NCBI GenBank assembly: GCA_003024785.1
Contig: PUQB01000521.1
Span: forward strand, 1-64,000
Direction: 5' to 3'
Source: Selaginella tamariscina
Taxonomy: Eukaryota; Streptophyta; Lycopodiopsida; Selaginellales; Selaginellaceae
DNA length: 64,000 nucleotides
Made by a program: the position numbers and the translations under genes. This document shows positions 1,240-62,322 of the stretch, one piece after another. The notes beneath the pieces are model-generated. The model worked only from the letters and a program-made list of their open reading frames with translations. It searched no databases and was not told the DNA's origin. Numbering within the stretch: position 1 is the stretch's first letter; the number at the start of each line of letters is the position of its first letter.

Positions 1240-1742
1240 AGCAATTATAAAATTATAAAATATCATATATTTAATATTCATAATTATTATAAACTCTTTA
1301 ATAATAGTGCCAAATTTTACTTAACTATATAAATTTAAAAAACGATATGGAAGATTATTAGAGGATTTTGTATATTATATATATATTATTACTACTACAA
1401 ATTTTTAATTAATAATGTTATATTTAAATATTAATATTTTAATAACAACATCAATATTTATATAATGTACCTCTTATGCTCTTCCTTAATTGTTATATTA
1501 GATAATATATTATATAATTTAATACTTTCTACTTTTATAATGTTATTAATTTTTGTTCAATGAATGCTATAATTTATTAAAGGGTTGAATACAAAATAGA
1601 ATATTTTAAAGAATATTCTATTTTCAAACATATATTCTAAAGAATATTCCTTTAATATTAGAAAATGCTAATTAAATAGTTAAAATTGCTAATTATTAGG
1701 AAATGGGACTATAGCCATGCCCATTTTAGTTACAACTTGCAT

Positions 1743-23166: not shown

Positions 23167-23632
23167 CCAGCCCACTTACACATACAGGAAGGGGGGGGGG
23201 GGGGGCCGTCACATAAATAAGGTAAAGTATGTAGGAATGAGGATTCCTGGGTTCATGACTGAGCTCGTTACTCTTCTCCCGATGCAAGCTCTAGGTTGTG
23301 TCATCAAGGCACAACCCTTTGTTGTGCCACCCTAACTTCCAGATGACAGGGGTACGTCCCACCTTCGGGTAGTTTACCCTTAACGTGGCGAATCCATGCC
23401 TGGGAGGTTTTGTCGGGATGCACGTTCCAAGGCAGAGGTTGAGGCTTGTCTCCAACTTCCTCCTCCACGTCAAGCTAGGTTGTAGCACTCATGACCAAGA
23501 AAGGCACATCTTGTGTCCTTTTCCAACCATGGCGTGGGATCTTGTTTGACGAGTTCGCATTACCCAGTTCCTGAGGGTTCACTAAGGGGTTCTAGAGTTG
23601 GCATTTAGGAGCCACGTTTGTGCACTTGCAAT

Positions 23633-27101: not shown

Positions 27102-27136
27102 ATGCACGTTGTAACTAAAGTGGGCATGATACGTGA
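27102..27136 (+). repeat. Left terminal inverted repeat, copy B
   Basis: Matches the reverse complement of 44124-44160 (outer end of copy C) almost base for base, and the ends at 1742, 36074 and 62322 over the first 25 or so bases. Confidence 0.85.
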
Positions 27137-27379
27137 AAATGGGAATATAAAATAAATTACTAATTAATACTTAAGTTTTAATTATTAATTAATTATTTAA
27201 TTAATATGTAATTAAGCTTAAATATTAATTAATTAATTAATTAATCTTTCAATAACCTTACTTAGTAAGGAATTTCCTAAACTATCTTAGAATATTCATA
27301 TTATTTCTAAAAATAGTTTACAATAATGAGAAATACTATCAAACATAATTACAAATGAAATCATTTCCTTATTAACATG

Positions 27380-28578
27380 TTAATTTATTATAAATACTTT
27401 CTTCCTAACCATACAGAGAAATCTCCTCATTTTGTCTAAATCATCACTCTCCGGATTAATCAAATCATTTTGGTCAATATATTGATGTTGTTGCCACCAC
27501 CTAACACTCTCACGAATGCAATTGGGAGTTGCCATCCTTGTTAAACATAAGATGTAATAAGACCAGGTCTGCATAAAGGCTCATCTAAAAATTGACGTTC
27601 CTTAAGAATAATATTATAAAGCACCTGGTGCTATCCTTCATTTTATAAAATTCAAAATCACGAGAAAGAAAAGCTTCAGGAAATGTATGATACGGTGGAT
27701 ACTGCTCACAAAAATTTTCGAGATTCTTCTTTCTGAGGCACGTATCCAAGTAGTTCACTAGCTCATCCATGATATCGGTATCAGAATATGGATCGAAAGT
27801 GATTGGATGAATACAAGCAATGTTTTGGTTGAGCATAGCCTTTTGAGGAGAGTCGTCTACTACTAAGATATGTGCATTCTTCGTTATCCTTAAGCGACTG
27901 ATCTCCCCATGAGTCCCAATTATTCTTTCATTCTTGAAGAAGTATGGCTTGCTTTCCTTTCTTATATTGTGAAATTCGAGAGGTTTATAACACATTCGCT
28001 GGTCAAAAATCCAATCTTTACGAATCACCTCTTCTGCAACACTACAATGTTTCTTAAGCAAATTCAACAGCGGTGTTAAGTTATGAATCTGCATGCATGA
28101 CCAAATCCCCACAAGCGCACCCATCTCCTTAAGCTTTTTGAAAGAGACGATCCAACCCTGGACGAAAAATAATATCATATCGAAATTTACCATGACAAGG
28201 AATGAAATCTCCTTGTTTGATTTCTTTTTTCCTATTCTCGGGCCTTTGTCGATGAAGCAGAACACCATTGACATCCAACAACACAATATGGCCATGAGTA
28301 ACATGAGATAGCGTTGCCTCTTGAATACTTTGCAAATCACTTGTTTGCTCCCTTTCACATTTATCCGTTGCCACTATCTCGTTGCCTATCCCTTCATCAT
28401 TTAATTGTACATCATCCTTACAAGATTCAGATATTGCATGCGCTGAAGAAATTGATTTCGGAACTGAAGCCAATAAAAATGATGATGAAAAAACTGAAGT
28501 GGCCCCCATGGTAACGATGTTTTGAGCTGCATTATTATCCATTTCCTGCATGAACTCTGTCATTTTGACATGTGGCAC
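27380..28578 (-). pseudogene. FCP1/NLI-interacting-factor-like HAD phosphatase, cargo of copy B (frameshifted)
   Basis: Family members remove phosphate from proteins such as the RNA polymerase II tail, using a DxDx(T/V) nucleophile motif. Here the first frame (28578-28129, 149 codons) has an N-terminal serine-rich region, then VLLDVNGVLLHRQRP and RYDIIFRPGLDRLF. After a one-base shift in an A-run (about 28135) the second frame (28358-27585) continues with KEMGALVGIWS and ILVVDDSPQKAML, the fourth HAD motif. A further shift near 27620 separates the tail. The second motif-I aspartate is Asn (DVN), a variant I recall from plant NIF-domain proteins, so enzymatic activity is doubtful. Three copies of the gene exist in the window. 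It looks like a captured host gene, but capture is inference. Confidence 0.7.
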
Positions 28579-28840
28579 AAGAAATTGTCGTTAAACCCCT
28601 CTCTTACCTCATTGCCAATGCTGAAAATCCATGTTCTCAATTGTTTCATTACATCTGCAAAATGATAATTAGCTGACCTTAAAATTATCAAGGTATATTA
28701 TTTACCTTGTTAATGTGTGACCATGTTTGAACTAAAAGCTTCATTAATCCTTGAGAATTATTTTCTGTACAAATATAAACGAATATACAAAATGCCTTAT
28801 GTTACACTCATTTACAACTATTCGTCACTCTAACAATTCA

Positions 28841-29460
28841 TTAACAATTCTTCTTCGCTATTACCTTCTGAGTGAGGCGAAGAAGTCTAAGCCGCTTGTG
28901 AGATGGTTCAAGATCTTCTTCATCTTCTATTGATGTTTCCATGGGTAATGAAGTGTGCAAATGTTCTGTACTCCTCGAGATAACTTCCGGTCTAATATCT
29001 GATTGAAGTTCGTCCTCAGACTCCGACATTTGAACCAGATTTCGTCTTCAGAGCTATCGCACTTATCTGGAGGGAACTTTCTCAAATACTCCTTTATGGA
29101 TTCGTTGGGGTACTCAGTTGAGACCTATCTATCCACTTGTTCAGGTCCTCAAACCATGGTCTTATCCTTTTCAACGGCAAATACACATGTATGCCGAAGG
29201 TAACACTCCTTCAAGACAGACCCCCTAGTGCAGTAGTCAAAAACCCACGCATCACTGTGAGGACCCCTGATCAAGTTGACAATGCTCCATGCCGCTTGAC
29301 TTGTGATGTTTGGATAACGTACATTGCCGAATACGTCACTCTCACCTATCGGTGTATCGGATGGAGGTTCAGGGCCATTGGAGTGCAAACAGATGCCTGG
29401 CCAGTCATTTGGAAGTTTGAAACTGTTTGGCGCATTACAAACCCTAGGAATATACTTAAA
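28841..29460 (-). pseudogene. Uncharacterised minus-strand cargo ORF of copy B
   Basis: A frame from 29388 (79 codons, with VFGNVRYPNITSQAAW) and an overlapping acidic frame (29029-28841, MSESEDELQSDIRPE) are conserved in copies C (41930-42497, plus) and D (57420-57947, minus). It lies upstream of, and on the same strand as, the phosphatase-like ORF. The two could be exons of one gene. I do not recognise the sequence. The coding signal is the persistence of PSDTPI and NVRYPNITSQ across copies. Confidence 0.45.
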
Positions 29461-29579
29461 CCCTAAAAGGAATAGAAATATATTAACCCTAATCGAATAT
29501 TCCTTTTAAGAATATACTTAAACCCTAAAAAGAATAAACTATAGATTCGCCCTAAACGAATATTCTTTCATTATATTAT

Positions 29580-30330
29580 CAGCGTGTGCGTGTGCGTGTG
29601 TATCACATACACCCCAAGAATAAATATCATGCAAGGGTTTAACACGTGTATGAAAGTGTTAAAGTTTCACATACAACGATACATATATACACACATAGTA
29701 TTATAACATAGACATACATACATATTAGTATATATTAATATTAGAGAGACAGAGTACAGGATCATGTATGGTGTGTATGTATGAGAGAAGAGTGAGAGTG
29801 TTAACAAATTAAATTCATACACATTGGATATATTAGTACACACATATACATACACACGTGTATACACACAGACATACATACATATTACATGTGTAAATTC
29901 AATGTAGGGTTTAGGGTTTAGGGTTAGGATGGATCATGCATGGTGTTTATGTATGAGAGGAGTGAGTGTTATACACAGATATACATTATACATATTACAT
30001 AATATTGTAACATCAGTACATATTATGGATCATGCATGGTGTGTATGTATGAGAGAAGAGACAGGCTACATATTATGGATCATGATCATGCATGGTGTGT
30101 ATGTATGAGAGAAGGGATTATGCATGGTGACACTGTGTATGTATGAGAGAAGAGATAGAGTGTTAACAAATGAAAATCGTACACATTGCATATATTATAT
30201 TAGTACACATATATACATACACACGTGTATACACACAGACATACATATATATTACATGTGTAAATTCAATGTGTTACATACACACACACTGAGTACATAT
30301 AGATCATACATGCGTTGAACATGATGTTTT
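29580..30330. repeat. Degenerate tandem repeats (CATGCATGGTGTGTATGTATGAGAGAAGAG unit, TG/CA tracts)
   Basis: At least five copies of a unit of about 34 bp (CATGCATGGTGTGTATGTATG followed by AGAGAAGAG) occur from 29760 to 30150, mixed with CA/TG dinucleotide tracts, CACGTGTATAC blocks and a short telomere-like GGGTTTAGGGTTTAGGG (29904-29925). Copy C mirrors this at 41000-41760. Copy D lacks it. Confidence 0.75.
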
Positions 30331-31050
30331 TCAATAAAGAAGCAACATATAATTTCTCAAGTTTGGTTTAGGGCAATGTGCATGTGTGTGCATATGTGTC
30401 TCTGTAAGTGCTTCTAATGCGTGTGCACATGTATATATAAATTTATGATTGTGTTTATATATAATATGTGCAAAACAAACATCGAATAATTAAGAAAATA
30501 ATATTAATATACACACTATGAACATATTTTAAATTATACATAATAATATATGATTTTATCTAATATATAGCCATATATAGTTTTAATAATATATATTAAT
30601 TTAAATTGATAATAAGGTTTAACACTAGAATATTCTTGAAATAATAACAAATTAATTGAGAAAATCCCATTAATATATACAAATGTAGAATAATTACTGA
30701 GATAATTAAGAATAAGACTAATTTAATTATGATAATTGTTTAATATTGGAATATTCTTTGAATATTAAGAAAATAAAAAGAATATCCCATTAATAGTAGG
30801 AAATGTAAATTAATTACTCGAGTAATTAAGAAAATAATAATAATAAACAGACTATGAATATATTTTAAATGATACATAATAATATATCAATTTATTTATT
30901 GTATTATGTATATATATATATAATATAAACTTAATAATATATACTTGAATATTAAGAATGTAGAATAATTACAAAAATTTCGTAATATTAAACAGCTTGA
31001 AGCACTTGAATGACATTAAATGCAATTTTAAAACACTCATTGGAATTGGA
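30331..31050. other. AT-rich spacer of copy B without genes
   Basis: Rich in AATATT and TATATA motifs, with no frame of note. It is mirrored in copy C (40240-40990) and absent from copy D. Confidence 0.6.
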
Positions 31051-31061
31051 GAGTATATATG
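31051..31061 (+). promoter_or_regulatory. Candidate TATA box of the transposase gene
   Basis: GAGTATATATG lies about 290 bp before a strong 5' splice site. The same sequence is conserved in copy C (near 40200). Copy D has lost this region. Confidence 0.4.
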
Positions 31062-31064
31062 TCA

Positions 31065-31342
31065 GACTGTCGGTTATTTGTTTCAACTCATCTTAAATTT
31101 TCTTTTCTGTTATTTCAAAAATTTCGAATTTCTGACATAAGTATTATCAGTCTGACATGTAAATTTGAAAATACATTTAATTTCCCACTCAAATTCAGAT
31201 CTGGTTCTTTCTCCGGCAAGGGTTTCTTCATTTTCACTCTTCAGATTTTCTTTTTTCTTCTTAGTGATCAGCTCAGGAGCGACATTAAATTGGGTGCGCT
31301 ATTGTTTATAGGAAAGCACGGCGCCTTCAGTGCTGTTTACAA
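31065..31342 (+). other. Putative leader exon 1 of the transposase gene (copy B)
   Basis: This CT-rich, leader-like segment ends TTTACAA before GTAAGTATT, a near-consensus plant donor site. An open frame of 95 codons crosses it (31059-31346), but its protein looks unconserved, so it is more likely untranslated. Copy C has the same splice site (complement near 39911). Confidence 0.4.
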
Positions 31343-32477
31343 GTAAGTATTATAAACAAATTTAGATATATTTATAAAGATTCACTCTCTTACATTCTCT
31401 CTTAAATTTTAGAATTTAGGGATTTAGGAATGCATTAGGATTACAATATATTCTGTTAGGGATTTATCCCGTTTAAATATACTTTTAACTTAGTATTCTC
31501 GGTTAGCCGGGGCGGCGGGATTAATCCGGCCATTTTTTTTTCGCCTCTTTGAAGAGGTGGGATTAATCCCGCCACCATCTCTTTCATAGCTATGGCAGAA
31601 TTAGTTCGGGCAATGCTTCTCCGCCTCTTAAAAAGAGCGGCGAGATTAATCCCGCCGATAACTCTCTCAACTGATAATGATTTACTTGAATTTATTAGAA
31701 AGAGTTGTCGGCGGGATTAATCTCGCCAACCATTTTAGGAGGCAGAGAAGGGGTGGCGGGATTAATCTCACTACTTCCCTGTTTTAAATATTTGTGGGCA
31801 GAATTCATCCCGAATCTCTTTGAAATCATAGTTTCGGAGAGAGTTGTGGGCGGGATTAATCCCGCCGCTTATTCCCCGTCGTCAGAGTTGTGGGCGGGAT
31901 TAATCCCGCCGCCTATTCTCCGTCGTCAGTGTTGTGGGCGGGATTAATCCCGCCCCCTCTTCCTCGTCGGAGGAATTTGGCGGGATTAATCCCGCCGACT
32001 CTCAGGAGGAAGATGCGGCGGGATTAATCCCGCCGGTACTTCCTAGAGGGAGCCCGCGGCGGGATTAATCCCGCCGCTACTCCTCGTCGGAGGGAGCCCG
32101 CGGCGGGATTAATCCCGCCGCTACTTCCTCGTCGAGGGAGTCTGCGGCGGGATTAATCCCGCCGTACTTCTCGTCTGAGGGAGCCCGCGGCGGGATTAAT
32201 CCGCCTCTCTCCGACGGGGTAGAGTCGGCGGCGGGATTAATCCCGCCGACTCTCTCCGATGGGGTAGAGTCGGCGGATTAATCCCGCCGACTCACTCTGA
32301 AGGGGTAGAGTCTGCGGCGGGATTAATCCCGCCCATCAGTTATATTAATAAAGCATGAGATATTTTTTATATATAATTATGTATTATTGCACATGCATAT
32401 TATTAAGCAACTGCAGTTATGATTTCTTAAAATATTGCATAAACAGATATCATAAATAACACAATTTTTATGTGCAG
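31343..32477 (+). other. Putative first intron of the transposase gene, carrying the palindrome array
   Basis: The donor GTAAGTATT at 31343 and acceptor TTTATGTGCAG ending 32477 would remove 1135 bp and place the first AUG (32484) six bases into exon 2. The acceptor is kept in copies C and D, and the donor in C. This needs RNA evidence. Confidence 0.45.
31514..32333. repeat. Array of 17 palindromes, consensus GGCGGGATTAATCCCGCC (copy B)
   Basis: The unit is a perfect 18-bp palindrome with an ATTAAT core. Starts I could place in the regular part are 31849, 31893, 31937, 31979, 32017, 32058, 32102, 32146, 32189, 32230, 32272 and 32316, giving spacings of 38-44 bp (mean near 42). Units at the left edge are degenerate (GGTGGG, GGCGAG) and wider apart. 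Spacers are partly repetitive (CCTCGTCGGAGGGAG, CTCTCCGATGGGGTAGAG). Confidence 0.92.
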
Positions 32478-32483
32478 GACAAT

Positions 32484-35400
32484 ATGTATAATACTGGAGA
32501 TAAAGTATGTCTTCTTCGGAACAACGAGATAGTTGGCACTGGAACTGTGGAAGTTCGAGATGATAATGCATCATGTCACAATATTGCCCAAGGATCTTGT
32601 GTGTACGTATGGGTGAACACCATTTTCAAGCATGTTGAGGTTCCTGGAATGGAATTTGAGGAGGGTTCTCCTGTATTGTGGAATTTGGATGAAGTCAAGG
32701 CTGACACAGAATATACAGAGTCACAAACAAACAGTAGCACGAGTTTTCCAGATGATGGCTTGCCTGCTGTGATGGATGAGGTGATTCTCTTTCTTCATGA
32801 GATTGAGGTTGGGAGAGGCATCATCACAGCTATAAATCCAATGGAAGCAGTGTCAGAAGAGAAACTAGGGTCCGACTTCGTGGGTGTAGTTGTGACAGAG
32901 GTTTCACCTAATGGCACTTTGCATCCTGGATCCCTCGTGAGGTGGCGAACATCTGAATTAAGACGGCAAGATGGTTCAACATATTCTGGGTTGGATTTCA
33001 ATAATAACAACCCGGAAGAACAACTCATATTTGAAGAGGTTCCTTGCATTGGTCCTATTAAAGAAAAAGGCGATTCATGGGTTGCAGATCTTCCCCTACA
33101 TGTTTCAGCAAGAGGATGAAGATGGATCCTACATCTTCCGAAAGTGTTACGAGCATTTCCACGATTGACTGCTGCAAGAAGAAGTGTTGTCAGATGGCAG
33201 ACCGGAATGAAATTACCCAATGTAGACATGTCTTTCGTACGCTCACCCAAAAGCAAAGGCATGAGTTTGTATATGCTGCACTAACTGGGTGTATTGATGG
33301 AATGGCTTCGGACACAGGTTATCAGAGTACATCCATGGTATTTAATAAGGTGGCCATCTGCTTCAAAGCTTGGTAATATATGGGATCCCAAAGACCACGT
33401 TCTACCGTCGGAGGGATGAGTGGTTAGATGGAGCGCGAACCTCAGTACATGGGAACACTGGCTTGGTCAAAACCCGCTCTCACATTATGGCAGCCATAGA
33501 GATACTCAAGGCTTTTGTGGAAGCAAATGCAGACAGGATGCCTCACAAATGCCGAACCACAAATGCAGGGGTCAGGGAAAATCTCAAGGTTTTGCCTTCG
33601 ATCTACACTCAATTGAAGCTGTGTGAACATGTGAACAAGTGCCTCAGCTTGATGGGGCTGCAAGCAATCTGCACTGGTACCTTCAACAACATATGGAATA
33701 CTCATTTTAAGGATGTGGAGATTGCAAAACACTCTAGCTTTTCCAAGTGTGACACTTGTACATCATTGAAGGCTGCAGAGGCTTGTGCAAAAACCTTGGT
33801 GGAGATCACTGCCATTCAAAAGAAGATGGAGGCCCACATGATTGCAACAAACTTGCCGGTCTCAGTACTATGCACACCGCATGCTTTCTGTGTCACACCC
33901 ATCAGAGTACCTGTGCTTGATCCATGACAAGATGGATCATTCAAAGACCAGCATTCCAAAGCTCGTTGCAACACCAAAGTGCCTTGGAAATGTCATGAAA
34001 CTTCCGATTTCATTGACAGGTGTGCTAACACATGGACACGGTTGTGAATCATATGGACACTTTTCACTTCCACATTGGTCTAGCGACTCCAATTTCACTA
34101 TTGGGTCGTTGGCCATGTGTTTCAGAAACCTTGAAGCCCACTCACAGACAAGTCCTATCGGTGATCTCAAAGTGAAGAAACAACACCTTCAACCTTTACA
34201 TAATGCTCTCATGAACACGTCTGCACTTGAGGCTACTTGGGAATATGAGAGGCATTGTCAGCAACCTGCACAAAAAACAGATGGCCCTGTTGAGAGTTCA
34301 GGTTCAGTGGAGGGATCTAGCTCAAATAGTGTACATGTGTCCTCAACATCAAATAAGCTTCCTCGTCATTTGCTTTTACAGATGGATAATTGTGCAGGCG
34401 AGAACAAAAATAGGTAAATCATTTTACTTAAGGGTTTCTCAAGCTCATACTTACTTTTATTTTCTAGATATGTGCTAGCATACTTGTCAATGCTTGTTGC
34501 CAAAGGTGTGTTTGAAACAATCACGCTCAGTTTTCTTATGGTTGGTCACACTCATTGATGCGTTCTTCAGCAAGGTCTCCAACTCTACAAAAAGGACAAG
34601 TGCACTTACCTTACCGCATATGATGAATCTTTTTGAAAATTGCATCTCCAAAAAAAGTTGTGCTTTGCTTGTGACTGAGGTGCCAGACTTCAAAAAATTT
34701 CTCAAGGAGTATATAAAAGAGGGGAGTGATTCTTTAGTTGGTCACCTTGTGCCGCTACAATTCTTTTTCTCCATACGAGATGGTATACCTATTATGCAGT
34801 ACAAGTTACGGCCATCAGAGCAGGAGTGGTTACCGAAAGAGGGGTTAATGCTCTTCAAAAGTGGAGAGAATGGAAAGCCACTTCTCCCAGAAGGACAACC
34901 AGACCCTATTCCATTGAGTGCCCAGCTCAAGGAACAAGAGGTTATTATTGATGGCATCAAAAAATATGTGGCATGGGTTCAAAAATCGATGCCAAAGAAT
35001 TCTGATAAGGCAACTGGTTACTCAGAACTATATAAGCATGTGGTTGACTATTGGGAGACTGTTGTTCGAGAGTTGGAAGGGCCTACTGTCACAAGTACAG
35101 AATTGCAACACCCTTTTTGGCCTAAAACAAGGTGGCGAGAGGAGATTGAAATGACATCACTGAGCACAGACGACATAGAAGCCAGTAGTGATGTGGAAGT
35201 GCAAACCCCACACTTTGTTGGACAAAGGAACCAAAAACCTAAAGCATACTTTGATTGCTGCCAGGATCTTCAAAAACTAATGATGGTTCTCATTACTCCA
35301 GATGCGTCATATAATCAGCCTATTTGGATGGGTCAAATTATCGACACACCTGAAGTAATCACAAAAAATAGTATTGTTAAGGTTCAAACCACAAAAAAGG

Positions 35401-35580
35401 CGACACGAGAAGGAGAGCGAAAGATATAATGGATGCCTAGAGAAAACATGGTCTCCCAATCAAAAAGACCCAGCATGTTTTATAAATGTTAAATCCATTC
35501 GATATGGGTGGATGTCAAGAAGCGTTGATAAAGTCACGATTAACAAAACTGCAAGGGAATGTATGTTTTCTGAAGCTTAA
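32484..35580 (+). pseudogene. Transposase-like DUF7869-type protein (copy B, frameshifted)
   Basis: This is the presumed transposase of the element. From the first AUG after the acceptor: a beta-rich module (GDKVCLLRNNEIVGTGTVEV), a second similar one (VILFLHEIEVGRGIIT), a Cys-rich segment (CCKKKCC), a region like that preceding DUF7869 (RTLTQKQRHEFVYAAL, then GIPKTTFYRRRDEW), and a Cys pair (KCDTC). The putative catalytic part has IHDKMDHSK, MDNCAGENKN and, after a 54-bp intron, VGHTHEDID; these fit a D-D-(H/D) RNase H-like core. Frame is lost at about 33057, a stop follows the Ala-Trp codons at about 33374, and further indels lie near 33845 and 34553. Copies A and D read through some of these points, so an intact relative may exist elsewhere. 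Confidence 0.72.
34414..34467 (+). other. 54-bp intron of the transposase gene (copy B)
   Basis: GTAAATC...TTTTCTAG lies between the MDNCAGENKN and VGHTHEDID motifs. Position and length are identical in all four copies. Confidence 0.8.
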
Positions 35581-36074
35581 AGCAATTACAAAATTATAAA
35601 ATATCATATATTTAATATTCATAATTATTATAAACTCTTTAATAATAGTACCAAATTGTTTACTTAACTATATAAATTTAAAAAATGATATGGAAGATTG
35701 ACTATATTATTATAGGTTTATATATATTTATTATTACTATAAATTTTTAATTAATATTATATTTAAATATTAATATTTTAATAACAACATCAATATTTAT
35801 ATAATGTACCTCTTATGCTCTTCCTTAATTGTTATATTAGGCAATATATTATATAATTTAATACCTTTATTTATAATGTTTAATTTTTGTTCAATGAATG
35901 CTATAATTTATTAAAGGGTAGAATACAAAATAGAATATTCTAAAGAATATTCTATTTTCAAACATATATTCTAAAGAATATTCCTTTAATATTAGAAAAT
36001 GCTAATTAAATAGCTAAAATTGCTAATTATTAGGAAATGGGACTATAGCCATGCCCATTTTTTACAACTTGCAT
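35581..36074. other. AT-rich 3' tail and right terminal repeat of copy B
   Basis: Non-coding, with repeated AATATTCTAAAGAATATT motifs (35935-35990). It ends in the terminal repeat GCCATGCCCAT...TACAACTTGCAT. The same tail is at 1240-1742 and 61808-62322. It is missing from copy C. Confidence 0.75.
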
Positions 36075-36077
36075 ATT

Positions 36078-38847
36078 AGTTTTTTGAAGATCCTGGCAGC
36101 AATCAAAGTATGCTTTAGGTTTTTGGTTCCTTTGTCCAACAAAGTGTGGGGTTTGCACTTCCACATCACTACTGGCTTCTATATCGTCTGTGCTCAGTGA
36201 TGTCATTTCAATCTCCTCTCGCCACCTTGTTTTAGGCCAAAAAGGGTGTTGCAATTCTGTACTTGTGACAGTAGGCCCTTCCAACTCTCGAACAACAGTC
36301 TCCCAATAGTCAACCACATGCTTATATAGTTCTGAGTAACCAGTTGCCTTATCAGAATTCTTTGGCATCGATTTTTGAACCCATGCCACATATTTTTTGA
36401 TGCCATCAATAATAACCTCTTGTTCCTTGAGCTGGGCACTCAATGGAATAGGGTCTGGTTGTCCTTCTGGGAGAAGTGGCTTTCCATTCTCTCCACTTTT
36501 GAAGAGCATTAACCCCTCTTTCGGTAACCACTCCTGCTCTGATGGCCGTAACTTGTACTGCATAATAGGTATACCATCTCGTATGGAGAAAAAGAATTGT
36601 AGCGGCACAAGGTGACCAACTAAAGAATCACTCCCCTCTTTTATATACTCCTTGAGAAATTTTTTGAAGTCTGGCACCTCAGTCACAAGCAAAGCACAAC
36701 TTTTTTTGGAGATGCAATTTTCAAAAAGATTCATCATATGCGGTAAGGTAAGTGCACTTGTCCTTTTTGTAGAGTTGGAGACCTTGCTGAAGAACGCATC
36801 AATATCCAACCATAAGAAAACTGAGCGTGATTGTTTCAAACACACCTTTGGCAACAAGCATTGACAAGTATGCTAGCACATATCTAGAAAATAAAAGTAA
36901 GTATGAGCTTGAGAAACCCTTAAGTAAAATGATTTACCTATTTTTGTTCTCGCCTGCACAATTATCCATCTGTAAAAGCAAATGACGAGGAAGCTTATTT
37001 GATGTTGAGGACACATGTACACTATTTGAGCTAGATCCCTCCACTGAACCTGAACTCTCAACAGGCCATCTGTTTTTTGTGCAGGTTGCTGACAATGCCT
37101 CTCATATTCCCAAGTAGCCTCAAGTGCAGACGTGTTCATGAGAGCATTATGTAAAGGTTGAAGGTGTTGTTTCTTCACTTTGAGATCACTGATAGGACTT
37201 GTCTGTGAGTGGGCTTCAAGGTTTCTGAAACACATGGCCAACGACCCAATAGTGAAATTGGAGTCGCTAGACCAATGTGGAAGTGAAAAGTGTCCATATG
37301 ATCACAACCGTGTCCATGTGTTAGCACACCTGTCAATGAAATCGGAAGTTTCATGACATTTCCAAGGCACTTTGGTGTTGCAACGAGCTTTGGAATGCTG
37401 GTCTTTGAATGATCCATCTTGTCATGGATCAAGCACAGGTACTCTGATGGGTGACACAGAAAGCATGCGGTGTGCATAGTACTGAGACCGGCAAGTTTGT
37501 TGCAATCATGTGGGCCTCCATCTTCTTTTGAATGGCAGTGATCTCCACCAAGGTTTTTGCACAAGCCTCTGCAGCCTTCAATGATGTACAAGTGTCACAC
37601 TTGGAAAAGCTAGAGTGTTTTGCAATCTCCACATCCTTAAAATGAGTATTCCATATGTTGTTGAAGGTACCAGTGCAGATTGCTTGCAGCCCCATCAAGC
37701 TGAGGCACTTGTTCACATGTTCACACAGCTTCAATTGAGTGTAGATCGAAGGCAAAACCTTGAGATTTTCCCTGACCCCTGCATTTGTGGTTCGGCATTT
37801 GTGAGGCATCCTGTCTGCATTTGCTTCCACAAAAGCCTTGAGTATCTCTATGGCTGCCATAATGTGAGAGCGGGTTTTGACCAAGCCAGTGTTCCCATGT
37901 ACTGAGGTTCGCGCTCCATCTAACCACTCATCGGGTCTTTGGGATCCCATATATACTGTACCAAGCTTTGAAGCAGATGGCCACCTTATTAAATAGGATG
38001 TACTCTGATAACCTGTGTCCGAAGCCATTCCATCAATACACCCAGTTAGTGCAGCATATACAAACTCATGCCTTTGCTTTTGGGTGAGCGTACGAAAGAC
38101 ATGTCTACATTGGGTAATTTCATTCCGGTCTGCCATCTGACAACACTTCTTCTTGCAGCAGTCAATCGTGGAAATGCTCGTAACACTTTCGGAAGATGTA
38201 GGATCCATCTTCACCCTCTTGCTGAAACATGCAGGGGAAGATCTGCAACCCATGAATCGCCTTTTTCTTATAATAGGACCAATGCAAGGAACCTCTTCAA
38301 ATATGAGTTGTTCTTCCGGGTTGTTATTATTGAAATCCAACCCAGAATATGTTGAACCATCTTGCCGTCTTAATTCAGATGTTCGCCACCTCACGAGGGA
38401 TCCAGGATGCAAAGTGCCATTAGGTGAAACCTCTGTCACAACTACACCCACGAAGTCGGACCCTAGTTTCTCTTCTGACACTGCTTCCATTGGATTTATA
38501 GCTGTGATGATGCCTCTCCCAACCTCAATCTCATGAAGAAAGAGAATCACCTCATCCATCACAGCAGGCAAGCCATCATCTGGAAAACTCGTGCTACTGT
38601 TTGTTTGTGACTCTGTATATTCTGTGTCAGCCTTGACTTCATCCAAATTCCACAATACAGGAGAACCCTCCTCAAATTCCATTCCAGGAACCTCAACATG
38701 CTTGAAAATGGTGTTCACCCATACGTACACACAAGATCCTTGGGCAATATTGTGACATGATGCATTATCATCTCGAACTTCCACAGTTCCAGTGCCAACT
38801 ATCTCGTTGTTCCGAAGAAGACATACTTTATCTCCAGTATTATACAT
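36078..38847 (-). pseudogene. Transposase-like DUF7869-type protein (copy C, truncated)
   Basis: Its N-terminal half is the best preserved in the window. One frame runs from the acceptor site through the two beta-rich modules, the Cys-rich segment and KCDTC to about 37429. A shift before the IHDKMDHSK block then moves the rest to other frames. The frame 36857-36030 carries IDAFFSK and continues to the truncation point at the codons for CCQDLQK. The GHTHED part is deleted (ATATCCAACC at 36800-36810), so the putative catalytic site is broken. The 54-bp intron is at 36884-36937. Confidence 0.72.
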
Positions 38848-38996
38848 ATTGTCCTGCACATAAATAATTGTGTTATTTATGATATCTGTTTATGCAATAT
38901 TTTAAGAAATCATAACTGCGTTGCTTAATAATATGCATGTGCAATAATACATAATTATATAAAATAATATCTCATGCTTTATTAATATAACTGATG

Positions 38997-39741
38997 GGCG
39001 GGATTAATCCCGCCGCAGACTCTACCCCTTCAGAGTGAGTCGGCGGGATTAATCCCGCCGTCGACTCTACCCCATCGGAGAGAGTCGGCGGGATTAATCC
39101 CGCCGCCGATCCTCGTCGGAGAGAGGCGGCGGGATTAATCCCGCCGCGGGCTCCCTCCGACGAGAAGTAGCGGCGGGATTAATCCCGCCGCGGGCTCCCT
39201 CCGACGAGGAAGTACCGGCGGGATTAATCCCGCCGCCGGATCTTCCTCGTGAGAGTCGGCGGGATTAATCCGCCGCAAATTCCTCCACGAGGAAGAGGGG
39301 GCGGGATTAATCCCGCCCACACACTGACGACGGAGAATAGGCGGCGGGATTAATCCCGCCCACAACTCTGACGACGGGGAATAAGCGGCGGGATTAATCC
39401 CGCCACAACTCTCTCCGAAACTATGATTTCAAAGAGATTCGGGATGAATTCTGCCCACAAATATTTAAAACAGGGAAGTATGGCGAGATTAATCCCGCCA
39501 CCCCTTCTCTGCCTCCTAAAATGGTTGGCGAGATTAATCCCGCCGACAACTCTTTCTAATAAATTCAAGTAAATCATTATCAGTTGAGAGAGTTATCGGG
39601 GATTAATCTCGCCGCTCTTTTTAAGAGGCGGAGAAGCATTGCCCGAACTAATTCTGCCATAGCTATGAAAGAGATGGTGGCGGGATTAATCCCGCCACCT
39701 CTTCAAAGAGGCGAAAAAAAATGGCCGGATTAATCCCGCGC
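38997..39741. repeat. Palindrome array, about 15 units (copy C)
   Basis: Mirror of the copy B array with the same GGCGGGATTAATCCCGCC consensus, same spacing and same gradient of degeneration away from the transposase. Unit number and spacers differ from B, so arrays have gained or lost units. Confidence 0.9.
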
Positions 39742-40239
39742 CCCGGCTAACCGAGAATATTAAGTTAAAAGTATATTTAAACGGGATAAATCCCTAACAG
39801 AATATATTGTAATCCTAATGCATTCCTAAATCCCTAAATTCTAAAATTTAAGAGAGAATGTAAGAGAGTGAATCTTTATAAATATATCTAAATTTGTTTA
39901 TAATACTTACTTGTAAACAGCACTGAAGGCGCCGTGCTTTCCTATAAACAATAGCACCCAATTTAATGTCGCTCCTGAGCTGATCACTAAGAAGAAAAAA
40001 GAAAATCTGAAGAGTGAAAAAAAAGAAATGAAGAAACCCTTGCCGGAGAAAGAACCAGATCTGAATTTGAGTGGGAAATTAAATGTATTTTCAAATTTAC
40101 ATGTCAGACTGATAATACTTATGTCAGAAATTCAAATTTTTGAAATAACAGAAAAGAAAATTTAAGATGAGTTGAAACAAATAACCGACAGTCTGACATA
40201 TATACTCTCCAATTCCAATGAGTGTTTTAAAATTGCATT

Positions 40240-41880
40240 TAATGTTATTCAAGTGCTTCAAGCTGTTTAATATTACGAAATTTTTGTAATTATTCTACAT
40301 TCTTAATATTCAAGTATATATTATTAGTTTATATTATATTATATATATATATATATATAATATATATATATATATACACTAATAAATAAATAAATTGATA
40401 TATTATTATGTATCATTTAAAATATATTCATAGTCTGTTTATTATTATTATTTTCTTAATTACTCGAGTAATTAATTTACATTTCCTACTATTAATGGGA
40501 TATTCTTTATTATTTTCTTAATATTGAAAGAATATTCCAATATTAAACCTGATTATCATAATTAAATTAGTCTTATTTTAATTATCTCAGTAATTATTCT
40601 ACATTTGTATATATTAATGGGATTTTCTCAATTAATTTGTTATTATTTCAAGAATATTTAGTGTTAAACCTTATTATCAATATTAAATTAATATATATTA
40701 TTAAAACTATATATGGCTATATATTAGATAAAATCATATATTATTATGTATAATTTAAAATATGTTCATAGTGTGTATATTAATATTATTTTCTTAATTA
40801 TTCGATGTTTGTTTTGCACATATTATATATAAACACAATCATAAATTTATATATACATGTGCACACGCATTAGAAGCACTTACAGAGACACATATGCACA
40901 CACATGCACATTGCCCTAAACCAAACTTGAGAAATTATATGTTCTTCTTTATTGAAAAACATCATGTTCAACGCATGTATGATCTATATGTACTCAGTGT
41001 GTGTGTATGTAACACATTGAATTTACACATGTAATATATATGTATGTTGTGTGTATACACGTGTATGTATATATGTGTACTAATATATGCAATGTGTACG
41101 ATTTTCATTTGTTAACACTCTATCTCTTCTCTCATACATACACAGTGTCACCATGCATAATCCCTTCTCTCATACATACACACCATGCATGATCATGATC
41201 CATAATATGTAGCCTGTCTCTTCTCTCATACATACACACATGCATGATCCATAATATATGATGTTACAATATTATGTAATATGTATAATGTATATCTGTG
41301 TATAACACTCACTCCTCTCATACATAAACACCATGCATGATCCATCTAACCTAAACCCTAAACCCTAAACCCTACATTGAATTTACACATGTAATATGTA
41401 TGTATGTCTGTGTGTATACACGTGTGTATGTATATGTGTGTACTAATATATCCACATGTGTATGAATTTAATTTGTTAACACTCTTCTCTCTCTCATACA
41501 TACACACCATGCATGATCCATAATATGTATTGTCACTCTTCTCTCATACATACACACCATACATGATCCTGTACTCTTCTCTCTAATATTAATATGTACT
41601 AATATGTATGTATTCTGTGTATAATATTATGTGTGTATATAGTTATCGCTGCACGTGAAACTTTAATACTCTCATGACATACACGTGTTAACCCTTGCAT
41701 GATATTTATCTTGGGGTGTATGTGATACACCCATGCACACGCACACGCTGATAATATAATGAAAGAATATTCGTTTAGGGCGAATCTATAGTTTATTCTT
41801 TTTAGGGTTTAAGTATATTCTTAGAAGTATATTTGATTAGGGTTAATTATATTCTATTTCTTTTAGGGTTAAGTATATTC
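40240..41880. repeat. AT-rich spacer and degenerate tandem repeats (copy C)
   Basis: Reverse complement of 29580-31050, with a TA dinucleotide run (40335-40375), CATGCATG-type units (41120-41520) and a telomere-like CCCTAAACCCTAAACCC block (41350-41375). No genes are seen. Confidence 0.7.
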
Positions 41881-41899
41881 CTAGGGTTTGTAATGCGCC

Positions 41900-42497
41900 A
41901 CACAATTTCAAAATTCCAAATGAACTGGCCAGGCATCTGTTTGCACTCCAACGGCCTGAACCTCCATTCGATACACCGATAACTGAGAGTGACGTATTCG
42001 GCAATGTACGTTATCCAAACATCACAAATCAAAGCGGCACGGAGCATCGTCAACTTGATCAGGGTCCTCACAATGATGCGTGGGTTTGACTACTACACTA
42101 GGGGTCGTCTTGAAGGAGTGTTACCTTCGGGATACATGTGTATTTGCCGTTGAAAAGGATAAGACCATGGTTGAGGACCTGAACAATGGATCGATAGGTT
42201 CTCAACTGACTACCCCAACGAATCCATAAAGGAGTATTTGAGAAAGTTCCTTCCCGATAAATGCGATAGCTCTTGAAGACGAATCTGGTTCAATGTTGGA
42301 GTCTGAGGACGAACTTCAATCAAATATTAGACCGGAAGTTATCTCGAGGAGTAAGAACATTCGCACACTCCATTACCCATGGAAACATTAATAGAAGATA
42401 CAGAGATCATGAACCATCTCACAAGCGGCTTAGACCTTCTTCGCCTCACTCAGAAGGTATAGCGAAGAAAGAATTTGTTAATGAGTTCTTAGAGTGA
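41900..42497 (+). pseudogene. Uncharacterised cargo ORF (copy C)
   Basis: Homologue of 28841-29460. Short frames show PSDTPI, GNVRYPNITNQ-like sequence and, from 42273, SLRTNFNQILDRKLSRG in the alternative frame. Several indels break it. Confidence 0.4.
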
Positions 42498-42751
42498 TGA
42501 ATAGTTGTAAATGAGAATAACATAAGGCATTTTATAATATTTCGTTTATATTTGTACAGAAAATAAATTCTCAAGGATTAATGAAGCTTTTAGTTCAAAC
42601 ATGGGTCACACATTAACAAGGTAAATAATATACCTTGATAATTTTAAGGTCAGCTAATTATCATTTCGCAGATGTAATGAAACAATTGAGAACATGGATT
42701 TTCAGTATTGGCATGAGGTAAGAGAGGGGTTTGGCGACAATTTTTTGTGCC

Positions 42752-43931
42752 ACATGTCAGAATGACAGAGTTCATGTAGGAAATGGATAATATGCAGCTC
42801 AAAACATCGTTACCATGGGGCCACTTCAGTTTTTTCATCATCATTTTTATTGGCTTCAGTTCCGAAATCAATTTCTTCAAGCGCATGCAATATCTGAATC
42901 TTGTAAGATGATGTACAATTAAATGATGAAGGGATAGGCAACGAGATAGTGTCAATGGATAAATGTGAAAGGGAGCAAACAAGTGATTTGCAAAGTATTC
43001 AGAGGCAATGCTATCCCATGTTATCATGGCCATATTATGTTGTTGGATGTCAATGGTGTTCTGCTTCATCAACAAAGGCCCGAGGATAGAAAAAAGAATC
43101 AAACAAGGAGATTTCATTCCTTGTCATGGTAAATTTTGATATAATATTATTTTTCGTCCAGGGTTGGATCGTCTCTTTTAAAAGCTTAAGGAGATGGGTG
43201 CACTTATGGGGATTTGGTCATGCATGCAGATTCATAACTTAACACCGATGTGAATTTGCTTAAGAAACATTGCAGTGTTGCAGAAGAGGTGATTCGTAAA
43301 GATTGGATTTTTGACCAGCAATATGTTTAAACCTCTCGAATTTCACAATATAAGAAGGAAAGCAAGTCATACTTCTGCAAGAATGAAAGATTAATTGGGC
43401 TTCATGGGGAGATCAGTCGCTTAAGGATAATAAAGAATGCACATATCTTAGTAGTAGACGACTCTCCTTAGAAGGCTATGCTCAACCAAACATTGCTTGT
43501 ATTCATTCAATCACTTTCAATCCATATTCTGATACTGATATTATGGATGAGCTAGTGAATTACTTGGATACGTGCCTCAGAAAGAAGAATCTCAAAAAAT
43601 TTTTATGAGCAGTATTCACCGTATCAACATTTCCTGAAGCTTTCTTTCTCGTGATTTTGAATTTTATAAAATGAAGGATAGCAACCGGGCGCTTTATAAT
43701 ATTATTCTTAAGGAACGTCATTCTTTAGATGAGCCTTTATGCAGACCTGGTCTTATTACATCTTATGTATTAACAAGGATGGCAACTCCCAATTGCATTC
43801 GTGAGAGTGTTAGGTGGTGGTGGCAACAACATCAAGATATTGACCAAAATGATTTGATTAATCCGGAGAGTGATGATTTAAATAAAATGAGGAGAGATTT
43901 CTCTGTATGGTTAGGAAGAAAGTATTTATAA
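42752..43931 (+). pseudogene. FCP1/NIF-like HAD phosphatase cargo (copy C, heavily frameshifted)
   Basis: The motif-I block (LLDVNGVLLHQQRP, about 43040-43080), the RPGLDRL block (about 43160) and the DDSP block (about 43455) are all present but in different frames, with an in-frame stop just after DDSP. The C-terminal 86 codons (43671-43931, with ATPNCIRESVRWW) are open. It is less conserved relative to B than the transposase half is. Confidence 0.65.
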
Positions 43932-44160
43932 ATAAATTACATGTTGATAAGAAAATAACATGTTGAATATTCTAAGATAGTTTAGGAATATTCCTTACTA
44001 AGTAAGGTTATTGAAGGATTAATTAATTAATTAATTAATATTTAAGGCTTAATTACATATTAATTAAATGATTAATTAATAATTAAAACTTAAGTATTAA
44101 TTAGTAATTATTTATATTCTCATTTTCACGTATCATGCCCACTTTAGTTACAATGTGCAT

Positions 44161-55850: not shown

Positions 55851-55963
55851 TTCCTAAAATATCTTAGAATATTCATATTATTCTAAAAATAGTTTACAAT
55901 AATTAAAAAATACTATCAAACATAATTACAAATGAAATCATTTTTTAACAACATGTTAATTTT

Positions 55964-57166
55964 TTATAAATACTTTCTTCCAATCATACAGAGAAATCTT
56001 CTCATTTTGTCTAAATTATGACTCTCTGGATTAATCGAATCATTTTGGTCAATATCTTGATGTTGTTGCCACCACCTAACACTCTCACGAATGCAATTGG
56101 GAGTTGCCATCCTTGTTAATACATAAAATGTGATAAGAGAAGGTCTACATAAAGGCTCATCTAAAAATTGACGTTCCTTAAGAATAATATTATAAAGTGC
56201 TCGGTTGCTATCCTTCATTTTATAAAATTTAAAATCACGAGAAAGAAAAGCTTTAGGAAATGTTTGATATGATGGATACTGCTCATAAAAGTTTTTGAGA
56301 TTCTTCTTTCTAAGGTATGTATCTAAGTAGTTCACTAACTCATCCATGATATCGGTATCAGAATATGGGTCGAAAGTGAATGGATGAATACAAGCAATGT
56401 TTTGGTTGAGCATAGCCTTCTGAGGAGAGTCGTCTACCACTAACATATGTGCGTTCTTCATTATCCTTAAACGACTGATCTCCCCATGAGTCCCAATAAA
56501 TCTTTCATTCTTGAAAAAGTATGGCTTACTTTCTTTTTTTATATTGTAAAATTTGAGAGGTTTATAACATACTCGTTAATCAAAAATCTAATCTTTAAGA
56601 ATCACCTCTTCTGCAACACTACAATGTTTCTTAAGCAAATTCAACATCGGTGTCAAGTTATGAATCTGCATGCATGACCAAATCCCCACAAGCGCACCCA
56701 TCTCCTAAGCTTTTGAAAGACATGGTCCAACTTGGACAAAAATAATATCATATCAAAATTTACCATGACAAGGAATGAAATCTCCTTGTTTGATTTCTTT
56801 TTTCCTATCCTCAGGCCTTTATCGATGAAGCAAAACACCATTGATATCCAACAACACAATATGGCCATGAGTAACATGGGATAGCGTTGCCTCTTAAATA
56901 CTTTGCAACTCACTTGTTTGCTCCCTTTCACATTTATCTATTGACACTATCTCATTGCCTATCCCTTTATCATTTAATTGTACATCATCCTTATAAGATT
57001 CAGATATTGCAGGTGCTGAAGAAATTGATTTCGGAACTGAAGCCAATAAAAATGGTGATGAAAAAATTAAAGTGGTCCCCATGGTAACGATGTTTTGAGC
57101 TGCATTATTATCATTTCCTGCATGAACTCTGTCATTCTGACATGTGGCACAAGAAAGTTTTGTCAA
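55964..57166 (-). pseudogene. FCP1/NIF-like HAD phosphatase cargo (copy D, frameshifted)
   Basis: The C-terminal half is the best of the three copies: 165 open codons (56461-55964) include LVVDDSPQKAML and ATPNCIRESVRWW. Upstream, motif I reads LLDINGVLLH (near 56840) and the N-terminal frame (57166-56894) ends in a premature stop before it. The open tail in D compared with B suggests damage after transposition or base-calling errors. Confidence 0.68.
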
Positions 57167-57419
57167 ACCCCTCTCTTATCTCATGGCAATGTTGAAAATC
57201 CATATTCTCAACTGTTTCATTATCTGCAAAATGATAGTTAGCTAACCTTATAATTATTAAGGTATATTATTTACTTTGTTAATGTGCGACTTATGTTTAA
57301 ACTAAAAGCTTCATTAATCCTTGAAAATTTATTTTCTATACAAATATAAACGAAATATACAAAAATGCCTTATGTTACATTCATTTACAACTATTCGTCA
57401 CTCTAAGAACTTATTAACA

Positions 57420-57960
57420 ATTCTTCTTCGCTATTACCTTCTGAGTGAGACGAAGAAGGTCTAGGCTGCTTGTGAGATGGCTCATGATCTTCCGTATCTT
57501 TTGTTGATGTTTCAGAGTGTGTAAATGTTATGTACTCCTCGAGATAACTTCTGGTCTAATATCTAATTGAAGTTCGTTCTTAGACTCCGACATTGAACCA
57601 GATTCGTCTTCAGAGCTATTGCACTTATCGGGAGGGAACTTTCTCAAATACTCATGTATGGGTTTGTTGGGGTAGTCAATTGAGAACCTCTCTATCACTT
57701 GTTCAGGTCCTCAACCATGGTCTTATCCGTTTCAACGGCAAAGACACATGTATCTCGAAGGTAACACTCCTTCAAGACGGACCCCTAGTGCAGTAATCAA
57801 AAACCCACGCATCACTTGAGGACCCCTAATTAAGTTGACGATGCTCCGTGCCACTTGACTTGTAATGTTTGGATAACGTACATTGCCGAATACATCCCTC
57901 TCAACTATTGGTGTATCGGATGGAGGTTCAGGCCCATTGGAGTGCAAACAAATGCCTGGC
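57420..57960 (-). pseudogene. Uncharacterised cargo ORF (copy D)
   Basis: Homologue of 28841-29460. The frame 57947-57732 has MHSNGPEPPSDTPIVER and VFGNVRYPNITSQ, then shifts. Same order and strand relative to the phosphatase-like gene as in B. Confidence 0.42.
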
Positions 57961-58159
57961 CAGTCAATTGAAAGTTTGGCGCATTCCTAACAACCAAGTG
58001 AATAATGGTATCAATGCACTTCGGATCAGCATCATTTATATAAAATCCTGTTCAACGATGTCTATTCTTCTTGGCGTATGTTGTACGTAAACCTTCTACA
58101 TTTTAGACAGAAACGTTTGGGATTGGTCCAACTCACCAATGGAGGAAAAAAAGAAGGGT

Positions 58160-58562
58160 GGCGGGATTCATCCCTCCACCAGGCATTGAAGGCTCGGCGG
58201 GATTAATTCCGCCGCCCAGGCCCTTCCCGCATGCAATGTGCGGCGGGATTAATCGCCGCCTAGGCCCTTTAGACAAGCATTTGGTGACGAGATTAATCCC
58301 ACTACCCAAGACGCGGGCTATGGGCGACAGATTAATCTTGCCAGATTTCGTGCAGGCATTAATCCGGGGGCGGGATTAATCCCGCTGCTTCTTCTTCGTC
58401 GGAGGGAGTCCGCGGTAGATTAATCCCGCCGCCTCTCTCCGATGAGGAAGATCCGGCGGTGGAATTAATCCCGCCGCGGACTCCCTTCAAGAAGAAGCGG
58501 CGAGATTAATCCCGCCGACTCACTCCGAAGGGATAGAGTCGGCAGCGGGATTAATCCCGCCC
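58160..58562. repeat. Palindrome array, about 10 units (copy D)
   Basis: Units are more degenerate than in B and C (ATTCAT or GGTAGATTAAT variants), but the ATTAAT core and spacing persist. The units next to the transposase are the best preserved. Confidence 0.88.
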
Positions 58563-58723
58563 ATCATTTGTATTAATGAAACATAAGATATTATCTCTAT
58601 ACATAATTATGTATTATTGCACATGTATATTATTGAATAACTGCAGTTCAGATTTCTTAAAATATTGCATAACAGATATCATAAATAACACAATTATTTA
58701 TGTGCAGGACAATATGTTTAATA

Positions 58724-61700: not shown

Positions 61701-61807
61701 CATGTTTTATAAATGTTAAATCCATTCGATATGGGTGGATGTCAAGAAGCGTTGATAAAGTCACGATTAACAAAACTGCAAGGGAATGTATGTTTTCTGA
61801 AGCTTAA
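58724..61807 (+). pseudogene. Transposase-like DUF7869-type protein (copy D, frameshifted)
   Basis: Starts downstream of the same acceptor (TTTATGTGCAG). An early one-base loss in the first module and others near 58965, 59280 and 59500 break the N-terminal half. From 59743 a 296-codon frame runs through KCDTC, IHDKMDHSK and MDNCAGENKN to the intron (60630-60683). Breaks follow at about 60748, in a T run just upstream of the GHTHED codons, and near 60945. Then 278 codons (60971-61807) reach the C-terminus with a third beta-rich module (IWMGQIIDTPEVI). It is the only copy with a complete C-terminal region. Confidence 0.74.
60630..60683 (+). other. 54-bp intron of the transposase gene (copy D)
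   Basis: Same donor GTAAATC and acceptor TTTTCTAG as in copies A-C, with frame kept on removal. Confidence 0.8.
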
Positions 61808-62322
61808 AGCAATTACAAAATTATAAAATATCATATATTTAATATTCATAATTATTATAAACTCTTTAATAATAGTACCAAATTTTGTTACTATATACTA
61901 TATAAATTTAAAAAATGATATGGAAGATTGACTATATTATTATAGGATTTGATATTATATATATATATATATATTATTACTACTACAAATTTTTAATTAA
62001 TAATGTTATATTTAAATATTAATATTTTAATAACAACATCAATATTTATATAATGTACCTCTTATGCTCTTCCTTAATTGTTATATTAGGCAATATATTA
62101 TATAATTTAATACCTTTACTTTTATAATGTTATTAATTTTTGTTCAATGAATGCTATAATTTATTAAAGTCAAATACAAAATAAATATTCTAAAGAATAT
62201 TTTTTTCAAACATATATTCTAAAGAATATTCTTTAATATTAGAAAATGCTAATTAAATAGCTAAATTGTTAATTATTAAGAAATAGAACTATAGCTATGC
62301 CCATTTTAATTACAACATGCAT
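61808..62322. other. AT-rich 3' tail and right terminal repeat of copy D
   Basis: Contains a TA run (61955-61970), AATATTCTAAAGAATATT motifs and the end GCTATGCCCATTTTAATTAC, then AACATGCAT. Confidence 0.75.

What the first reader, a model, noticed from the sequence alone, without database searches (positions are those of the whole stretch)
31514..32333. Regular array of 18-bp perfect palindromes in a transposon, spaced about four helical turns apart
Seventeen copies of GGCGGGATTAATCCCGCC sit 38-44 bp apart upstream of the transposase coding region, with a gradient from degenerate (far) to perfect (near the gene). A symmetric site points to a dimeric DNA-binding protein. A spacing near 42 bp would put all sites on the same face of the helix, so cooperative assembly (transpososome, enhancer or silencing complex) is plausible. 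Short subterminal arrays are known in CACTA and MuDR-like elements, but I know of no such long internal palindrome array.
Basis: seen in the sequence. Interest (0 to 1): 0.9.

Follow-up and report, generated by a model that had tools for sequence, protein, structure and literature searches.

The report
Paired palindrome arrays in a transposon
A DNA transposon with thousands of ends in this genome carries two long rows of one 18-letter mirror-image DNA site, one in front of each of its two genes, which look like landing strips for a regulatory protein and may be how the element controls or protects its own activity.

Summary
The array is real: 17 sites within 3 mismatches of GGCGGGATTAATCCCGCC, 10 of them perfect; the window holds two more arrays. 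The window's copies are deletion derivatives. Copies elsewhere in the same 301-Mb genome show a transposon of about 14-15 kb with 27-bp inverted ends (3,901 ends) and a 4-bp TSD in 5 of 10 copies checked. It has two outward-facing genes: DUF7869, a probable DDE-type transposase, and a gene ending in an FCP1/NIF-like domain. Each has its own array on its 5' side. The perfect 18-mer occurs 27,128 times. Of the first 100 listed sites, 99 lie in clear family copies and 1 in an uncertain one; 20 of 20 pattern-drawn places also lie in the family. The two arrays share motif and a 44-46 bp step but their spacers are unrelated, so the motif itself is maintained. Helical phasing is not supported, and the arrays lie 4-5 kb inside the ends, so transpososome assembly is not favoured. 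Best reading (inference): binding arrays for a dimeric regulator of both element genes, working like VANC target arrays of VANDAL elements, in a different transposase family. The binder is unidentified.

The parts
27102..36074 (+). Transposon copy A: internal-deletion derivative of the family, both ends present
   Evidence: Ends shared with copies B, C and D and with 3,901 genomic ends; lacks reference 2440-7476, including array 2
27102..27128 (+). Left terminal inverted repeat, ATGCACGTTGTAACTAAAGTGGGCATG
   Evidence: Sequence; pattern count in own genome
36048..36074 (-). Right terminal inverted repeat of copy A (slightly degraded)
   Evidence: cleaner in copy D ending at 1742
31514..32333 (.). 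Array 1: 17 sites with 3 or fewer mismatches (10 perfect), upstream of the DUF7869 gene
31459..31470 (.). Isolated degenerate core site GGGATTTATCCC just outside the array
31343..32477 (+). Predicted 5' leader intron holding array 1 (donor CAA|GTAAGTATT, acceptor TGTGCAG|GACAATATG)
   Evidence: 20-mers around donor and acceptor exact in 13 of 14 and 11 of 14 other copies, with the core sites between them; splicing itself not tested; copy C lacks the donor
32484..35400 (+). DUF7869 (PF25273) gene, broken by small indels in this copy; probable DDE/D transposase
   Evidence: fold of a relative
27585..28373 (-). Remnant of gene 2: C-terminal FCP1/NIF-like HAD domain (PF03031)
36075..44160 (-). Copy B, inverted, abutting copy A and lacking the 793 bp next to its right end; forms a 17-kb palindrome with A
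38997..39740 (.). Array 1 of copy B (14 sites with 3 or fewer mismatches, 10 perfect)
55851..62322 (+). Copy C: derivative lacking the left end
58160..58561 (.). Array of copy C (7 sites with 3 or fewer mismatches, none perfect): array-2-like spacers on the left joined to array-1 units on the right
1..1742 (+). Copy D: right end of the element, ending inside a retrotransposon reverse-transcriptase region

Best explanation
The palindromes are binding sites for a dimeric, sequence-specific DNA-binding protein, laid out in one array at the 5' side (probably inside the leader intron) of each of the transposon's two outward-facing genes. Filling an array would recruit or exclude chromatin and transcription factors and so switch both element genes together. 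The likeliest binder is one of the element's own two proteins, which would make the arrays a self-recognition and positive-feedback (anti-silencing) device, working like VANC on VANDAL motif arrays. Shown: anatomy, motif conservation against spacer turnover, linkage to the family in the sites sampled, one array per gene. Inferred: that a protein binds, that it is a dimer, that it is element-encoded, and that the outcome is activation.
For: One array lies on the 5' side of each gene: DUF7869 on the right, gene 2 on the left. Arrays 1 and 2 share the 18-mer and a 44-46 bp step, but their spacers are unrelated (best identity 0.63 against 0.58 for shuffled ones; within an array 0.86 and 0.83). Within the window arrays, site identity is 0.77-0.87 against 0.49-0.50 for spacers. 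Copies A and C differ at 6 of 89 site bases but 17 of 95 spacer bases (Fisher p = 0.026). Of the first 100 listed exact sites, 99 lie in clear family copies, and 20 of 20 pattern-drawn places do. The family is large and looks young: 3,901 ends, many listed DUF7869 matches with the same 95-bit score, some in open frames near 1,000 aa. A published precedent exists for clustered, tandemly evolving motif arrays in non-coding parts of a TE, bound by its own anti-silencing protein (PMC5735166).
Against: No binding, expression or methylation data. No recognised DNA-binding domain in gene 2, and only a by-eye helix-turn-helix-like stretch in the DUF7869 protein. CpG observed/expected of the array-1 spacers (0.75) is not clearly above the element's flanks (0.63-0.68), though the DUF7869 gene is at 0.38, so there is no independent sign of hypomethylation. 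Between the young copies A and B, sites are no better kept than spacers (1 of 302 against 2 of 452 substitutions; 9 against 12 indels). Array 1 lies about 150 bp and array 2 several hundred bp from the start codon. One array (L090) lies just outside a left end and its membership is uncertain.
Confidence: 0.5

Rival explanations
1. The arrays are transposition enhancers: the transposase binds the repeated sites and the arrays help bring the two ends together, as proposed for the tandem repeats of Galileo.
For: The Galileo transposase THAP domain binds sites in tandem repeats of its long TIRs (PMC3688188, abstract and discussion). Two arrays per element, one in each half. Deletion derivatives A, B and C in the window still hold an array. 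One array-2 example has R 0.64 at 10.5 bp.
Against: Arrays lie about 5.4 kb and 3.8 kb from the ends, not in or near the TIRs; no general helical phasing; each array is beside a gene start rather than an end.
Confidence: 0.17
2. The sites recruit a host transcription factor (for example one reading the GGCGGGA half, which recalls an E2F site), so that element genes follow the host cell cycle or tissue.
For: Half-site TCCCGCC resembles E2F sites (recalled; the listings gave nothing directly on point). Sites sit 5' of both genes.
Against: The best-kept bases are the central ATTAAT, not the GC arms; E2F would not need a perfect 18-bp palindrome (recalled); the sites sampled are almost all in this one family.
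Confidence: 0.16
3. The arrays act as nucleic-acid structure: transcripts or single strands fold into long hairpins that feed small-RNA silencing or block transcription.
For: The proximal array folds at -366 kcal/mol against -221 for shuffles; keeping sites and shuffling spacers costs about 42 kcal/mol, as spacers occur in both orientations.
Against: Any row of palindromes folds; hairpin function would not keep the letters of the 18-mer identical between arrays 1 and 2. Silencing bait would harm the element, yet the family looks young and abundant.
Confidence: 0.09
4. Neutral satellite-like expansion inside a transposon, with no function for the palindrome.
For: Spacers within one array are related by local duplication and inversion; indels are common in the arrays and hit sites as often as spacers between A and B.
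Against: Two arrays with unrelated spacers share one 18-mer and step; old distal units largely keep the site although their spacers have lost likeness.
Confidence: 0.08

Closest known systems
VANDAL21 / VANC21 (Arabidopsis VANDAL elements with TE-encoded anti-silencing protein)
   Same: [quoted passage not shown] at high density only in that family (PMC5735166, passages)
   Different: Motif there is 9 bp, not a perfect palindrome, arrayed in one orientation; here an 18-bp perfect palindrome at a 44-46 bp step with unrelated spacers. Transposase gene is DUF7869; TSD 4 bp. No VANC homologue was recognised and no binding is shown here
Galileo / Foldback-like elements (P superfamily)
   Same: Multiple repeated sites for an element protein within one element (PMC3688188)
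   Different: Galileo sites lie in long terminal repeats; here TIRs are about 27 bp and arrays are 4-5 kb inside
CACTA (En/Spm) TnpA site clusters (recalled; the paper search held no paper)
   Same: Clustered short sites for an element-encoded regulator near an element promoter (recalled)
   Different: Those are subterminal and not perfect palindromes; TSD 3 bp (recalled)
Sola superfamily (features recalled; only its name in PMC4455052 seen, passages)
   Same: 4-bp target duplication, three-aspartate type transposase (both recalled features)
   Different: No sequence comparison with a Sola transposase could be made; relation untested

Membership tests
Cut-and-paste DNA transposon | Terminal inverted repeats | tested here: met
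   27-bp ends, 1995 + 1906 matches at 2 or fewer mismatches, 0 for the reversed control
Cut-and-paste DNA transposon | Target-site duplication of fixed length | tested here: met
   Exact 4-bp repeats flank 5 of 10 full-length copies; the other 5 show none
Cut-and-paste DNA transposon | RNase H-like DDE/D transposase | tested here: inconclusive
   [not shown]
VANDAL/VANC system | Motif array in non-coding element regions, specific to the family | tested here: met
   one of 11 clusters uncertain
VANDAL/VANC system | MULE transposase | tested here: not met
   Pfam finds only DUF7869 in the transposase gene
VANDAL/VANC system | VANC-type protein | tested here: inconclusive
   8 pieces of gene 2 scanned: only NIF above its Pfam cut-off; gene 2 not read in full
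VANDAL/VANC system | Protein binding and loss of methylation | not testable with these tools
   Needs bench data
Galileo/Foldback | Repeats lie in long terminal inverted repeats | tested here: not met
   Arrays about 5.4 and 3.8 kb from the ends
Sola superfamily | 4-bp TSD | tested here: met
   that this defines Sola is recalled
Sola superfamily | Sequence likeness to Sola transposases | not tested
   No Sola reference sequence at hand

The most novel reading that the evidence does not exclude
A second, independently evolved, VANC-like self-recognition system: a DUF7869 transposon writes the same 18-bp palindromic address in front of both of its genes, and its own protein reads that address to keep the copies of the family, and little else in the genome, switched on. 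That would explain about 27,000 perfect sites that, where sampled, lie in one young family.
Probability: 0.3. Interest if true: 0.85.

Novelty: new variant of a known kind. Interest (0 to 1): 0.7.

Why it matters
If right, clustered address sites read by a transposon's own regulator have evolved more than once, in unrelated transposase families. The system is unusually testable: one exact 18-bp site, about 27,000 copies, two genes, and a natural comparison between array 1, array 2 and derivatives that lost one of them. The element also gives the uncharacterised DUF7869 family a clear setting (27-bp TIR, 4-bp TSD, high copy), supporting a transposase role.

Tried and rejected
Helical phasing: not supported. 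Coding repeat (45 bp = 15 codons; frames run open through some arrays): rejected, since steps of 44, 46, 41 and 38 bp break the frame. Spacers as palindromes in themselves: 6 of 43 spacers tested reach p under 0.05, not general. CpG retention as a sign of hypomethylation: not clear (whole array 1.21, spacers 0.75, flanks 0.63-0.68, gene 0.38). CRISPR-like array: rejected, because spacers are related to one another and the host is eukaryotic. Bacterial operator or terminator: exact motif in 49 stretches of prokaryote contigs, one of them (L012) with two copies, the other 48 with one each; 1 viral contig. DUF7869 relatives in viral contigs: none of 47 pattern stretches. Whole-protein model of P0002: poor (pLDDT 54.7), not used. 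Solved relatives by sequence: none credible. Gene 2 relatives: none at E 0.001 among 560 candidates; the ParB-like look of one stretch of gene 2 is by eye only and got no Pfam or PDB support. tRNAs: none. Literature: DUF7869 in 0 papers; term searches listed no paper whose title or abstract start describes this array; those papers were not opened. A count of sites with a neighbour within 40 bp did not complete.

Full report
WHAT IS THERE. The window holds the array named in the finding: 17 sites with 3 or fewer mismatches to GGCGGGATTAATCCCGCC at 31514-32333, 10 perfect, where shuffled sequence gives none. Two more arrays lie at 38997-39740 (14 sites) and 58160-58561 (7 sites). Self-comparison shows why: 27102-35281 and 36075-44160 are inverted copies of each other at 93% identity, and 55851-62322 and 1-1742 are further partial copies. 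The sequence is eukaryotic: a short intron-like interruption inside the DUF7869 gene (by eye) and LTR-retrotransposon proteins nearby.

THE ELEMENT. Copies A, C and D end at the same right-hand sequence and A and B share the left end; the two ends form an inverted repeat, ATGCA(C/A)GTTGTAACTAAA(G/A)TGGGCATG. In the assembly that holds the window (300.7 Mb, 1,391 contigs) this end occurs 3,901 times at 2 or fewer mismatches, with 0 for the reversed control, which would be about two thousand elements, derivatives included. Ten pairs of ends 13.9-15.0 kb apart, chosen from the 100 listed places, were checked: 5 of 10 have an exact 4-bp repeat outside the ends (TAGA, CGTT, CTAT, TGGT, ATTG), 5 of 10 have none.

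FULL-LENGTH ANATOMY. A nearly complete copy at about C1:2072815-2087177 (L090, L091; its right end is among the listed ends, its left end is not and is placed by the blastn match that starts at window base 27106) reads, left to right: left end; a gene on the minus strand (gene 2) whose last part is an FCP1/NIF-like HAD domain (PF03031, E 2.1e-12 in a composite of window frames; 3.1e-10 in L090) and whose start lies on the array-2 side; array 2; about 3.4 kb of intergenic sequence, partly short repeats; array 1; the DUF7869 gene on the plus strand; right end. L090 and L091 leave about 100 bases unread between them. Two arrays a few kb apart on the 5' sides of the two outward-facing genes are also seen in L081, L085, L086, L087 and L088. 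Window copies A and B lost reference 2440-7476 with array 2; copy C carries array-2-like spacers joined to array-1 units.

THE MOTIF IS MAINTAINED, NOT THE REPEAT. The exact 18-mer occurs 27,128 times in the genome. The first 100 listed places, all on contig C1, fall in 11 stretches, which were fetched. Ten of the 11 arrays or array pairs, holding 99 of the 100 sites, lie in copies of this family; the one in L089 is an older or rearranged copy. The eleventh (L090, 1 exact site, 14 cores) lies just outside another copy's left end, beside weaker intergenic-like matches (73-82%), and is uncertain. A second sample, drawn by a base pattern 300 bp away, gave 20 places on 20 contigs: 20 of 20 lie in the family, 6 at array 1 with DUF7869 coding sequence in view, 14 at array 2. 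This sample is not strictly random, since the pattern hits like places in like copies (about 8 of the 14 array-2 places begin with nearly the same spacer). In it array 1 has 14-18 sites (45 of 96 perfect) and array 2 has 17-31 (147 of 355 perfect), counting sites with at least 14 matches; modal steps are 44-45 and 44/46 bp. Spacers of array 1 and array 2 are unrelated (best identity 0.63; shuffled 0.58), while spacers within one array are alike (0.86 and 0.83). Within window arrays the sites are 0.77-0.87 identical and spacers 0.49-0.50, near shuffled (0.43-0.46). Copies A and C differ at 6 of 89 site bases and 17 of 95 spacer bases. Against this, the very similar copies A and B show no difference between sites and spacers. 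The centre ATTAAT is the best-kept part in both arrays, although site calls need a minimum match and so favour this somewhat.

ORIENTATION AND GROWTH. Spacers recur in direct (28 of 325 pairs with z above 4) and inverted (16 of 325) orientation, and shuffling only the spacers weakens the predicted fold (-359 to a mean of -317, sd 6): units have been copied and flipped. Sites nearest the gene are best matched and the far ones decay (14 loci), consistent with new units being added on the gene side.

POSITION RELATIVE TO GENES. A strong splice donor-like sequence (CAA|GTAAGTATT) precedes array 1 and an acceptor-like one (TGTGCAG|GACAATATG) follows it; the 20-mers around them are exact in 13 of 14 and 11 of 14 other copies, the core sites lie between, and the last site is 146-156 bp before the start codon. 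Copy C lacks the donor. Gene 2 likewise has an acceptor-like TTTTGCAG between array 2 and its first start codon in L097, the one copy looked at. That the arrays lie in leader introns is an inference from sequence.

HOW IT MOST LIKELY WORKS. A symmetric site, kept while its surroundings turn over, placed in many copies before both genes of one element and, where sampled, hardly anywhere else, is what a binding platform for the element's own regulator should look like. The nearest tested precedent is VANDAL21, where VANC21 binds a 9-bp motif clustered in non-coding regions, introns and upstream of element genes, evolving by tandem repeats, and removes silencing marks (PMC5735166, passages; PMC10398659, abstract). 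Here the site, transposase and TSD differ, so this is 'works like', not 'is a'. A role in bringing ends together, as suggested for Galileo (PMC3688188, abstract and discussion), is less likely because the arrays lie 4-5 kb inside the ends. The binder could still be a host factor.

LIMITS. No eukaryotic genome other than the window's own could be searched, so conservation between species is unknown. No methylation, RNA or binding data. Copy numbers are from pattern counts.

Noticed in passing
window 27102-44160: Copies A and B form a 17-kb near-perfect palindrome; B is truncated exactly at A's right end and the lost 793 bp of B are not next to A's left end, which is retrotransposon sequence. 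Could be insertion of A into B followed by loss, or aberrant transposition.
   Followed up: partly
window 1742-1743: Copy D's right end sits inside the reverse-transcriptase region of an LTR retrotransposon.
   Followed up: partly
window 9900-27100 and 45650-55100: Several direct and inverted LTR-retrotransposon-like repeats, with short telomere-like AACCCTA repeats.
   Followed up: no
window 27585-28373 (-); L090 6492-7229 (-): A transposon-borne FCP1/NIF-like HAD domain with DxN in place of the usual DxD (by eye); unusual cargo or second transposition protein.
   Followed up: partly
L091 431-1054 (-), L082 5699-6397: Gene 2 holds a stretch (RPLNQERVAELM...IISGQHTITAAQRL) that by eye recalls ParB-type domains; the L091 piece got no Pfam or PDB support.
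   Followed up: partly
G000 C80:563731 and 563980; C1:2394829 and 2395078: Two left ends only about 250 bp apart, in the same orientation in one case and head to head in the other: possible end duplications or nested insertions.
   Followed up: no
window 32447-35281 against 36075-38900: Copies A and B differ by 7 substitutions and 11 indels in the aligned gene region, so small indels outnumber substitutions; may be real slippage or assembly error.
   Followed up: no
L090 3637-5473: A degraded array (14 cores, 1 exact site) just outside another copy's left end; its membership in the family is uncertain.
   Followed up: partly
L012 88-306: The only one of 49 prokaryotic stretches with two exact copies of the 18-mer (201 bp apart, Saprospiraceae contig).
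   Followed up: no
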